64,000 nucleotides of DNA from Parahoeflea alexandrii (GTDB lineage Bacteria; Pseudomonadota; Alphaproteobacteria; Rhizobiales; Rhizobiaceae). The stretch covers positions 25,270-89,269 of the forward strand of contig NZ_JAPWHB010000011.1 of assembly GCF_027214025.1 (NCBI RefSeq). The letters run 5' to 3'. Positions within the stretch are counted from its first letter, which is position 1. Each line of letters starts with the position of its first letter. Under the pieces are notes generated by a model that saw nothing but the letters and a program-made list of their open reading frames with translations, made no database searches and was not told where the DNA came from. Shown piece by piece: positions 25,982 through 28,348 of this stretch. Made by a program: the position numbers and the translations under genes.

Positions 25982-28348
25982 CTACATGCTGCGCCAGTCT
26001 TCGCTTTGCTCAAAGGCGTGCGCCGCCTGGTAAATCTTCAACTCGCCAAAACTCGGCCCCACCAGCATCATGCCGATCGGCAACCCCTCGCTCAACCCGC
26101 AAGGTACACTCATGGCAGGCAGTCCGCCATTGAAGGGCGCGGTGTTTCCGATCATCTCGAAGGCGCGCTGCACATAGAGGCTGATCGAACAGTCTGTCGG
26201 CGGGATCTGCTGCGGCTTCATCGGCATGGTCGGCATCAAGAGGACGTCGAAGCGCTTGAGCGCCTGGGCATACTTCTCGTTGACGCGGCGCATCAGATTC
26301 TGGGCCTTGCCGTAGAAGCGCCCGCGATACTGGGTCTGGAAATGCTCTCCGAGGAACATGCAGGTTTTCAGCGAATGGCTGAGTTCGTCCGCCCGGTTGC
26401 GCCACTGCGACATCTGGTCGATCATCGATGGCAGGAACAGGCCGCGGTAGTTGGTGCCCGCGGTATTGCCGTGCATCATGAAGTCCTGCAGGCCTTCCAC
26501 CGTGATCGCGGTCCAGCAATCGACGGCCAGAGTGTGCTCCGGCACGGAGATTTCCTCGACCATGGCGCCCAGCTGCCGGAACCGCTCCGCAGCCGCGAGC
26601 ACCTTCTCATCGACATCCGACTCGCTCTCGGGGCGACGGAAGCCTTCCTTCAGGATCCCGATCCGCAGCCCGTGCGCACCGCGGCCCAGCGCCTCGGTGT
26701 AGCGGTAGACCTTGGGGTTGTACTGGCGCGGATCGAGCCCGTCCTCCCCTGCAAGCACCTCAAGCAGGAGCGCGTTGTCGGCAACGTTCGATGTGACCGG
26801 ACCGACATGGTCGATGGTCATCTCCACCGGCATCACGCCGGTGTAGGGCACCAGACCGTGAGTGGCCTTCATGCCGTAAACCCCGCAAGCCGAGGACGGC
26901 AACCTGATCGAGCCGCCCTGGTCGCCGGCGATCGCCATGTCGACCTCACCGGTCGCCACCAGCGCCGCCGAGCCGCTCGACGAGCCGTTGGCCATGTAGC
27001 CGCGCTTCCACGGATTGTGCACCGGCCCCTTGGCATTGGTGTGCGATCCGCCGGACAGGCAGAAATTCTCGCAATGCGCCTTTCCGGCGATGATGGCGCC
27101 GGCATCGAGCATCCGCGTGACGATGGTTGCATCGATCTCGGGCGTGTAGCCCTCCATGATCGACGACCCGTTCATCATCGGCACGCCGGCAAGGCAGATC
27201 GTGTCCTTCAGCGCGATCCGCTTGCCGCGCAACGGCCCGTCGGGCGCTCCGCGCACCTCAGTTTTGACGTACCAGGCATTGAGCGGGTTTTCCGAGGGAT
27301 CCGGAAAGCGCCCCGGCGAACGCGGATAGCGGACCTCGGGCAGATTGTCCGGAAGGGCGTCGAGCCGGTCATAGGCCTGGATGTAGGGCTCCATGATCTG
27401 GCTGTACTCGGCCAGTTCCGCGTCCGTCAGGTTCATGCCGAAACGGCTCGCCATGGCGCGCATCTGCGAAAGGCTGGGGCGTTTGACTGTCATGCTTGTC
27501 ACCAGGGGCTGGGGAGTGATGGGTGCAGGTTCGGCAATCTGCTGCTGCCTCGGGGAGTTGGTCTTCGGATCGGGACCCGCATGCGCGGTGGCAGTTCCAG
27601 TGCCGCGTGTGGAACGCGCCGCGCCAAACCCGAGGAACTGGTCGACCTTCGCCTGGTCGGCCAGCTCGGCCTTGGAAAGTTCGCCGGCGATCCGTCCGCG
27701 TTCCAGCACCAGGACCCGGTCCGACAGATCCGAGATGAAGTCGAAGTTCTGCTCGACCAGCAGGATCGAAAGCCCGCGCCGTTCGCGCAAGCGAAGCAGG
27801 GTCTCCGACATCTCCTCGATGATCGAGGGTTGGATGCCTTCGGTCGGCTCGTCCAGCAGCAGGAATTCCGGATCGCCCATCAGGCTCCGGGCCAGCGCCA
27901 GCAATTGCTGTTCGCCGCCGGACAAGGCGCCACCCATCCGGTCGAGCAGCCGCGCCAGCCGCGGGAAATCGGCGAGCACAGCTTCGATCACCTCTTCCTC
28001 GCCGCCGCCGGAGTAGTCGTGCCAGGCAAAACGCAGATTGTCGCGCACGCTCAGTTGCGGGAAGATCCCGCGCCCCTGCGGCACGTAACCGATCCCGAGC
28101 CCGGCGCGCTCATAAGGTGAAAAGCGGGTGATCTCGACACCGTGAAACCGGACGGTGCCGGAACTGGCCGGCAGAAACCCCATGATGGTCTTGAGCAGGG
28201 TGGACTTGCCCATGCCGTTGTGGCCGAGAATGCCCACGACCTCGTTCTCGGCCACCGAAAACTCGATACCGTGCAGGATCGGGACCTTGCCGTAGCCTCC
28301 CGACAGGCTCTTGATATCCAGGCAGGTCTTGCGCTCCTCGGCCATCAT
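25982..28348 (-). CDS. Fusion of a LivF/UrtE-type ABC ATPase with an amidase-signature amidase
   Basis: 788 residues in one unbroken frame. Residues 1-245 are a LivF-like ATPase: Walker A GHNGMGKST 42-50, Q-loop near 91, signature LSGGEQQ 142-148, Walker B LLLDEP 163-168, H-loop replaced by LLVEQN as in LivF. A Pro/Gly/Thr-rich linker spans about 246-285. Residues 286-788 are a full amidase with the Ser-cisSer-Lys triad at Lys381, Ser456 and Ser480; the spacings of 75 and 24 equal those of fatty-acid amide hydrolase (142/217/241). The amidase half closely resembles Rhodococcus amidases of nitrile/amide pathways. ATG 28348 overlaps the LivG-like stop. Met286 (27493) could be an internal start, but its Shine-Dalgarno (GGTGA) is weak. 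Confidence 0.88.
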   Translation of the reverse strand: MMAEERKTCLDIKSLSGGYGKVPILHGIEFSVAENEVVGILGHNGMGKSTLLKTIMGFLPASSGTVRFHGVEITRFSPYERAGLGIGYVPQGRGIFPQLSVRDNLRFAWHDYSGGGEEEVIEAVLADFPRLARLLDRMGGALSGGEQQLLALARSLMGDPEFLLLDEPTEGIQPSIIEEMSETLLRLRERRGLSILLVEQNFDFISDLSDRVLVLERGRIAGELSKAELADQAKVDQFLGFGAARSTRGTGTATAHAGPDPKTNSPRQQQIAEPAPITPQPLVTSMTVKRPSLSQMRAMASRFGMNLTDAELAEYSQIMEPYIQAYDRLDALPDNLPEVRYPRSPGRFPDPSENPLNAWYVKTEVRGAPDGPLRGKRIALKDTICLAGVPMMNGSSIMEGYTPEIDATIVTRMLDAGAIIAGKAHCENFCLSGGSHTNAKGPVHNPWKRGYMANGSSSGSAALVATGEVDMAIAGDQGGSIRLPSSACGVYGMKATHGLVPYTGVMPVEMTIDHVGPVTSNVADNALLLEVLAGEDGLDPRQYNPKVYRYTEALGRGAHGLRIGILKEGFRRPESESDVDEKVLAAAERFRQLGAMVEEISVPEHTLAVDCWTAITVEGLQDFMMHGNTAGTNYRGLFLPSMIDQMSQWRNRADELSHSLKTCMFLGEHFQTQYRGRFYGKAQNLMRRVNEKYAQALKRFDVLLMPTMPMKPQQIPPTDCSISLYVQRAFEMIGNTAPFNGGLPAMSVPCGLSEGLPIGMMLVGPSFGELKIYQAAHAFEQSEDWRSM

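What the first reader, a model, noticed from the sequence alone, without database searches (positions are those of the whole stretch)
25982..28348. ABC-importer ATPase fused to a complete amidase
Seen: one uninterrupted 788-codon frame joins a LivF/UrtE-type ATPase (Walker A 42-50, LSGGE 142-146, Walker B 163-168) to an amidase-signature enzyme with Lys381/Ser456/Ser480, the same 75- and 24-residue spacings as fatty-acid amide hydrolase. Known: these two families are normally separate proteins. Inference: hydrolysis of the imported amide is tethered to the cytoplasmic face of its own transporter, channelling the substrate or coupling uptake to hydrolysis. I do not know of a characterised example.
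Basis: partly seen in the sequence, partly recalled or inferred. Interest (0 to 1): 0.82.

Follow-up and report, generated by a model that had tools for sequence, protein, structure and literature searches.

The report
Importer motor fused to amide-cutting enzyme
One bacterial gene, found in the same operon in many alphaproteobacteria, joins the ATP motor of a predicted amide importer to a predicted amide-cutting enzyme, and a conserved second start signal inside the gene suggests that cells likely also make the enzyme on its own, so that uptake and breakdown would be coupled.

Summary
It is no artefact: the frame is open in 90 of 109 related loci examined, and 11 of 385 alphaproteobacterial genomes carry it near full length. 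Trees of each half put the fused copies on one branch, so one fusion event is likely. Unfused relatives keep the same operon with LivF and amidase as neighbouring genes. Fused operons carry a flotillin before the binding protein (71 of 71 loci with room); split orthologous operons lack it (0 of 12). The amidase is closest to the Rhodococcus nitrile-pathway amidase, not fatty-acid amide hydrolase. New here: Met286, the old amidase start, is kept (87 of 89) behind a Shine-Dalgarno sequence conserved at nucleotide level inside a hypervariable linker. The third base of codon 282 changed 6 times while its amino acid changed 32 times, the most extreme of 138 variable codons. I conclude that the gene probably makes two products: an 86-kDa transporter-tethered amidase and a free 55-kDa amidase. 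Channelling is plausible but untested.

The parts
25982..28348 (-). LivF/UrtE-type ATPase-amidase fusion gene, 788 codons (86.0 kDa predicted)
   Evidence: open in 90 of 109 related loci
27629..28348 (-). ATPase half, residues 1-240
   Evidence: Pfam ABC_tran; these 240 residues were the query; pLDDT of 10-residue blocks 2-23 is 86-97
27494..27628 (-). linker, residues 241-285: hypervariable, rich in Ala/Pro/Thr/Arg/Ser, predicted disordered
   Evidence: identity to window 0.13 at residues 261-280, length of 241-293 ranges 44-97; pLDDT under 50 at 241-286
27498..27503 (-). GGTGAC, internal Shine-Dalgarno-like site at bases -10 to -5 before the internal ATG
27491..27493 (-). internal start codon ATG (Met286), start of the ancestral free amidase
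   Evidence: Met in 87 of 89 fused genes
25982..27493 (-). amidase-signature domain, residues 286-788; predicted free product 503 aa, 55.1 kDa
   Evidence: Pfam Amidase and NCBIfam NF005565 762 bits, cut-off 545; 3a1k E 4e-135
28348..29073 (-). LivG/UrtD-type ATPase; its stop overlaps the fusion's start (TGATG)
   Evidence: present in 79 of 79 named fused loci with room
29057..30097 (-). permease 2 (BPD_transp_2)
   Evidence: 79 of 79
30094..30960 (-). permease 1 (BPD_transp_2); the mechanical ORF starts at 31140, the likely start (MDLVF) is near 30960
   Evidence: 77 of 77
31040..32302 (-). substrate-binding protein (Peripla_BP_5/6; urea/amide-type)
   Evidence: 75 of 75
32318..33922 (-). flotillin (SPFH/Band_7 plus Flot domain)
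   Evidence: Pfam Flot E 9.6e-31; 71 of 71 named fused loci with room, 0 of 12 split orthologous operons
34041..35228 (-). AmiC-like ligand-binding protein, probable cytoplasmic amide sensor
   Evidence: AmiC 1pea E 4.9e-15; 70 of 70
35268..35681 (+). divergent MarR-family regulator
   Evidence: Pfam MarR; 67 of 70
24213..25970 (-). acyl-CoA ligase (AMP-binding) directly downstream, with a strong ribosome-binding site
   Evidence: 76 of 76

Best explanation
The gene joins a LivF/UrtE-type importer ATPase in one frame to a complete predicted amidase, and a conserved ribosome-binding site before Met286 predicts that it is read twice: as an 86-kDa fusion that likely serves as the importer's second motor and holds the amidase at the membrane, and as a free 55-kDa amidase. 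Shown: the open frame, the intact motifs, the conserved operon, the single fused branch in two trees, and constraint on the nucleotides of the internal site. Inferred: both products are made; the importer carries an amide; the amidase removes ammonia from it as it arrives; the downstream ligase would turn the acid into its CoA ester; the free copy would pair with the tethered one, since related amidases are reported as dimers of about 2 x 52-55 kDa, and could also serve amides made inside the cell by nitrile hydratase. The flotillin would gather these importers into a membrane patch.
For: Fusion: open in 90 of 109 loci; near full length in 11 of 385 class genomes, from seven family codes. Fused rows make one branch in the ATPase tree (35 of 35 rows used, SH-aLRT 96) and, with one contig-cut copy, in the amidase tree (95). 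Catalytic residues 89 of 89. Operon counts. Internal start: Met286 in 87 of 89; anti-SD pairing mean -7.04 kcal/mol (n=87) against -3.88 for other internal ATGs (n=2774), -8.62 for 26 starts of unfused amidases and -10.08 for 80 ligase starts. With amino acids held fixed, synonymous reshuffles give -4.33 (sd 0.26), 0 of 200 sets as low; also 0 of 200 for 42, 15 and 10 thinned representatives. Base -10, a third codon position, is G in 78 of 87; on the tree it needs 6 changes against 32 for its amino acid, the lowest of 138 codons with 20 or more amino-acid changes (next 15, mean 30.2). Some distant fused lineages have other SD words there (GGAGG, GGGAGG). No second close copy of this amidase was found in 9 of the 11 fused genomes (E 1e-90; only two candidates per genome were scored). 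Nitrile hydratase alpha in 12 of 12 fused genomes against 141 of 385 in the class.
Against: No protein data: neither product was seen. The synonymous-codon test is collective, not per gene: only 6 of 87 genes fall under 0.05 on their own, median 0.215, the window's own gene 0.375. Four of the 10 representatives (L014, L093, L095, L104) pair weakly, -3.5 to -4.2, where nulls do as well in 30-70% of draws. Pairing at Met286 is weaker than at unfused amidase starts (p 0.008). Stretches at residues about 472-484 pair even better on average, so pairing alone proves nothing without an ATG at the right distance. Met conservation alone is uninformative: Met296, 305, 392 and others are about as well kept. 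The two-product claim rests on one clade of related sequences. One locus (L046, not counted for lack of DNA) shows an inverted flotillin fragment instead of a normal flotillin end. The nitrile hydratase link is confounded by ancestry and genome size. Substrate, channelling and coupling are untested. The amidase half of the model has many low-confidence stretches (mean pLDDT 74, pTM 0.54 overall).
Confidence: 0.7

Rival explanations
1. Single product only: the gene makes the fusion alone, and the internal site is a relic of the old amidase gene or a coincidence.
For: Unfused relatives start the amidase at or near this place, so a relic is expected at first; some distant fused lineages show weak pairing, and few single genes pass the synonymous test alone.
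Against: The linker around it has turned over almost completely (identity 0.13 at residues 261-280), yet base -10 needs only 6 changes against 27-40 for the linker third positions upstream of it. Synonymous null sets never reach the observed mean.
Confidence: 0.17
2. Two separate proteins in practice: the amidase works only as the free form, and the fused frame or a processed linker merely supplies LivF.
For: Internal site; a disordered linker could be cut by proteases.
Against: No stop inside the linker in any of 89 genes; the stops seen in 9 extended translations lie in the first two codons, upstream of the gene start. Split operons show that separation is possible, yet no return to it was seen among the fused rows in the trees.
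Confidence: 0.07
3. The tether has no kinetic role: fusion merely fixes the ratio and joint production of importer and enzyme.
For: Split operons with the same gene order exist and presumably work; the linker is long and probably flexible.
Against: An equal ratio is not kept if a free copy is also made; the fusion goes together with a flotillin gene, which points to a role of place.
Confidence: 0.3
4. The amidase half is a sensor that slows the ATPase when its substrate or product builds up, as C-terminal domains do in some other importers.
For: C-terminal additions on importer ATPases with regulatory roles are known (recalled, no call).
Against: The full catalytic triad is kept in 89 of 89, and the linker is too variable for an obvious relay.
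Confidence: 0.05
5. Sequencing or assembly error hides a stop.
For: None found.
Against: Same frame in independent genomes from isolates and MAGs and in a finished Sulfitobacter plasmid where it is annotated as one CDS.
Confidence: 0.01

Closest known systems
Rhodococcus sp. N-771 amidase (PDB 3a1k/3a1i), nitrile-pathway amidase
   Same: Amidase half aligns over residues 289-781 with E 4.3e-135, Lys-Ser-Ser triad included
   Different: The Rhodococcus enzyme is a free protein; here it is fused to an importer ATPase
UrtABCDE / FmdDEF and LivFGHM importers (HAAT family)
   Same: SBP, two permeases, LivG and LivF halves of urea/amide type
   Different: All five components score below the urea-specific cut-offs; LivF carries an enzyme
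Unfused amide-importer operons of Alphaproteobacteria, e.g. Aureimonas sp. AU20 and Paracoccus methylovorus plasmids
   Same: Same gene order; amidase directly after LivF (12 split loci)
   Different: Amidase separate; no flotillin in 12 of 12 and none annotated in the two plasmid stretches; no closely related acyl-CoA ligase (best 33%, 1 of 12)
Pseudomonas amide operon regulator AmiC
   Same: A relative of AmiC is encoded upstream; in Paracoccus methylovorus a ligand-binding protein and an ANTAR protein follow the split amidase
   Different: The genome's single ANTAR match lies elsewhere; the Pseudomonas amidase belongs to another family (recalled)
Internal in-frame translation, e.g. Cas11b (PMC11899642, title and start of abstract seen in a search listing) and CheA-long/CheA-short (recalled)
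   Same: A shorter C-terminal product from a start inside the longer gene
   Different: Here the short form would be a whole enzyme and the long form carries a transporter motor; no protein evidence yet

Membership tests
Amidase signature family | Pfam PF01425 over cut-off, Gly/Ser-rich motif, Lys-cisSer-Ser triad | tested here: met
   293.7 bits against 27; K381/S456/S480 in 89 of 89
Amidase signature family | Amide hydrolysis | not testable with these tools
   needs purified protein
NF005565 / Rhodococcus-type amidase | Curated model cut-off 545 bits | tested here: met
   762.2 bits over residues 286-787
Fatty-acid amide hydrolase | Nearest relative among solved enzymes | tested here: not met
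   E 4.8e-34 against 4.3e-135 for Rhodococcus amidase
HAAT-type importer ATPase (LivF/UrtE) | Walker A, LSGGQ/E, Walker B, and SBP, two permeases and LivG in the operon | tested here: met
UrtE urea importer ATPase | TIGR03410 cut-off 285.8 bits | tested here: not met
   261.8 bits
Flotillin (neighbour gene) | SPFH/Band_7 and Flot domains over cut-off | tested here: met
   33.7 against 23.6 and 106.9 against 27 bits
Genes with an internal in-frame start | Conserved start codon behind a ribosome-binding site under nucleotide constraint | tested here: met
   collective signal, weak in four of ten distant representatives
Genes with an internal in-frame start | Both proteins detected | not testable with these tools
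   no proteomic or ribosome data at hand
Pseudomonas ami operon | AmiC plus ANTAR regulator AmiR beside the amidase | tested here: not met
   AmiC relative present; the genome's only ANTAR match is on contig C50, not on C2

The most novel reading that the evidence does not exclude
A dual-product gene builds an import-and-cut machine: an ABC importer whose own motor subunit carries the first catabolic enzyme, completed as a dimer by free copies translated from inside the same gene, and clustered by an operon-encoded flotillin, so that amides are hydrolysed as they enter the cell.
Probability: 0.3. Interest if true: 0.82.

Novelty: new variant of a known kind. Interest (0 to 1): 0.62.

Why it matters
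Whether importers hand substrates directly to catabolic enzymes is usually hard to test, because the two do not stay together (recalled). Here nature has welded them, probably once, and kept the weld across at least seven family codes of Alphaproteobacteria, while close relatives keep the unwelded operon as a ready control. The internal start gives a clean genetic switch: a silent change should remove the free enzyme and leave the tethered one. The repeated flotillin offers a concrete candidate client for bacterial flotillins.

Tried and rejected
Sequencing error: rejected. Fatty-acid amide hydrolase kinship: rejected. Urea importer: components below the urea cut-offs. Met286 conservation as evidence by itself: rejected, other methionines are about as conserved. 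Pairing energy by itself: not enough, a conserved Gly-rich stretch pairs better. The substrate could not be fixed: the ligase passes only a broad fatty-acid-CoA-ligase subfamily model (839 against 832 bits), and its best solved relatives, feruloyl- and fatty-acyl-CoA synthetases (E about 2e-79), do not name the acid. Flotillin has no sequence match among solved structures at E 0.001. Structure model: ATPase confident, linker disordered, amidase half patchy, perhaps because the alignment held 52 close sequences; no fold search was run. Independent origins of the fusion: none seen in the sampled trees; an AU test was not run. Papers: four searches aimed at the fusion or its neighbours (no paper; 6; 5) listed none whose title or start of abstract describes it; one of these (PMC8656257) was looked at by passages only. 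Most subscription journals are not held. Of the five plasmid records with a place covering 80% or more of the query, one was inspected and is fused (H1), two inspected are split (H4, H5), two were not inspected (H2, H3).

Full report
What is there. On the minus strand, 28348 down to 25982, one frame of 788 codons codes for an ABC ATPase (Pfam ABC_tran, residues 25-169) and a complete amidase (Pfam Amidase, 364-769). The gene's start overlaps the stop of an upstream LivG-like gene (TGATG) and it ends 11 bases before a downstream acyl-CoA ligase with a strong ribosome-binding site. Upstream on the same strand lie LivG, two permeases, a substrate-binding protein, a flotillin and an AmiC-like protein, with a divergent MarR regulator beyond.

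What the halves are. The amidase half passes the curated NF005565 amidase model (762 bits, cut-off 545), and its best solved relative is Rhodococcus amidase 3a1k, E 4.3e-135; fatty acid amide hydrolase is far behind (E 4.8e-34). The ATPase half is nearest to UrtE among the NCBIfam ATPase models listed but below its cut-off (261.8 against 285.8), and the other four transporter parts also fall short of the urea-specific models. So this is an amide-type importer by kinship, not a proven urea importer.

How widespread. A protein search scored 7998 candidates, its cap, and 7691 matched; all of the 120 listed carry both Pfam domains. In 385 Alphaproteobacteria genomes drawn without regard to the fusion, 52 have a match at E 1e-90 or better, and 11 of these, own genome included, match over nearly the whole length (from residues 1-9 to 787-788) with no stop; they bear seven family codes. 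A twelfth (G185) is cut by a contig end. In 398 genomes drawn from the phylum (E 1e-120), only the own genome has the fusion; three (G688, G714, G732) match over the whole length with stops inside, and one search shows them as two adjacent genes (L146-L148). Searches scored only two candidates per genome. The named search kept 80 of 143 relatives, from Hoeflea (96% in the best segment), roseobacters, Sneathiella, Nitratireductor, Roseibium and others. This set was found with the fusion as query, so '80 of 80 fused' is not a frequency. The own genome is probably a Hoeflea relative (inference).

Operon conservation. Among the 80 named loci, counting only those with enough DNA on the side concerned: AmiC-like 70 of 70, flotillin 71 of 71, binding protein 75 of 75, permeases 77 of 77 and 79 of 79, LivG 79 of 79, ligase 76 of 76, MarR in divergent orientation 67 of 70. 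Of the 9 loci not counted for flotillin, three show part of it (L082, L098, L106), five have no hit and little or no DNA there (L039, L052, L107, L111, L112), and L046 shows an inverted 34-residue piece near a contig end instead. No second LivF is in the window's operon, so the fusion is the only candidate there for the importer's second motor subunit (inference).

Where it came from. Of 29 loci from other genomes delivered, 10 are fused and 19 are not (one of the 19 is cut by a contig end); 11 of the 19 have an ATPase gene just upstream of the amidase gene on the same strand. With longer DNA (39 loci, some of them fused genes again), 12 loci (L129, L131-L134, L146-L148, L156, L157, L166, L167) show the orthologous operon with LivF and amidase as separate neighbours. 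Several of the 12 are near copies (L131/L166/L167, L146/L157, L147/L156). None of the 12 has the flotillin; in the 8 of them where the AmiC-like gene is visible it lies within 400 bases of the binding protein, leaving no room. The five fused loci with longer DNA (L140-L144) all have it. A tree of 72 amidase domains puts all 35 fused rows used (of 89 available) and the cut copy on one branch (SH-aLRT 95), and a tree of 52 ATPase domains puts its 35 fused rows on one branch (96). Fusion and flotillin were thus probably gained on the same stretch of the tree, once.

The linker and the second start. In 89 fused proteins (88 loci and the window; L076 and L111 dropped for incomplete amidases, five short loci replaced by longer copies of the same genes) the catalytic residues are invariant, while the stretch 241-293 varies from 44 to 97 residues, is rich in Ala, Pro, Thr, Arg and Ser, and has identity 0.13 at residues 261-280. 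A structure model gives 241-286 pLDDT under 50. Nine translations show a stop, always in the first two codons of my extension upstream of the gene start, never inside. At the end of this linker sits Met286, Met in 87 of 89. Upstream of it the anti-Shine-Dalgarno pairing energy is -7.04 kcal/mol on average, against -3.88 at 2774 other internal ATGs, -8.62 at 26 starts of unfused amidases (26 of 33 had an ATG at the expected place) and -10.08 at 80 ligase starts; it is weaker than at the unfused starts (p 0.008).

Is that more than amino-acid constraint? Taken together, yes. Reshuffling synonymous codons with the amino acids held fixed gives -4.33 (sd 0.26), never reaching the observed mean in 200 sets; thinning to 42, 15 and 10 representatives leaves 0 of 200 each time. 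Gene by gene the test is weak: 6 of 87 fall under 0.05, the median is 0.215 and the window's own gene 0.375. Base -10 is a third codon position and is G in 78 of 87, although these G-ending codons stand for Thr, Leu, Val, Ala, Pro, Gln, Arg, Ser, Lys or Glu. On a tree of the 89 amidase domains it needs 6 changes while the amino acid needs 32; the linker third positions from -37 to -13 need 27 to 40. Among 783 codons examined, 138 have 20 or more amino-acid changes; codon 282 has the fewest third-base changes of all (6; next 15; mean 30.2). Some early-branching fused lineages have other words at the same place, GGAGG in L017 and L108 and GGGAGG in L142. Against: four of the ten representatives pair weakly, Met conservation alone is not special, and stretches inside the amidase pair better on average.

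Mechanism. I read the gene as a two-product gene: an 86.0-kDa tethered amidase and a free 55.1-kDa amidase (masses). Related amidases are cited as dimers of 2 x 52 and 2 x 54.7 kDa (PMC4145624, passages only; that they are related is recalled). One importer holds one LivF (recalled), so a free partner would complete the dimer without tying two importers together; this is inference. The free form may also serve amides made inside the cell: nitrile hydratase alpha is present in 12 of 12 fused genomes (G185 included) against 141 of 385 in the class (Fisher 4e-6, not corrected for ancestry), and lies about 0.2-8 kb from an unfused copy of this amidase in G208, G296, G260, G162 and G033 (coordinates). 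In 9 of the 11 fused genomes no second copy of this amidase was found at E 1e-90. Flotillins and their kin are generally believed to help membrane proteins assemble into microcompartments, a view that passages of PMC8656257 report and also call questioned; that this one gathers the importer is my inference.

Known or new. Both parts are well known families; the joint, its probable single origin, its flotillin partner and the internal start are what is new here. The public annotation of one finished plasmid calls the whole 794-codon gene (stop included) simply 'amidase', which hides the fusion. The paper searches listed no description. I call it a new variant of a known kind.

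Noticed in passing
window 32318-33922: An operon-encoded flotillin goes with the fused but not with the split amide operons (71 of 71, against 0 of 12); a possible specific client for a bacterial flotillin.
   Followed up: partly
window 34041-35228; L169 10115-11894: The AmiC-like protein shows no obvious signal peptide (by eye) and I saw no ANTAR partner here, whereas in Paracoccus methylovorus a ligand-binding protein plus an ANTAR gene follow the split amidase. How the sensor acts without AmiR is open; a MarR gene sits divergently beside it.
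   Followed up: partly
G260, G162, G033, G208, G296 (coordinates): Nitrile hydratase alpha genes lie about 0.2-8 kb from this amidase subfamily in unfused relatives.
   Followed up: no
L046 703-804: A 34-residue C-terminal flotillin piece lies inverted just upstream of the binding protein near a contig end; rearrangement or assembly end effect.
   Followed up: no
L059: A MAG labelled Halieaceae (Gammaproteobacteria) holds the fused gene at 78% identity; misbinning or transfer.
   Followed up: no
L134: Two amidases of this subfamily stand in tandem behind a split LivF (56% and 50% identical to the window's).
   Followed up: no
L094 10004-10700: LivG matches in two pieces with about 17 residues missing between them; possible frameshift or divergent loop.
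   Followed up: no
window 19768-24109: Beyond the ligase, a TIM-barrel protein, a type I phosphodiesterase-like protein and a dipeptide-binding-type protein keep the same order in Hoeflea alexandrii (L038).
   Followed up: no
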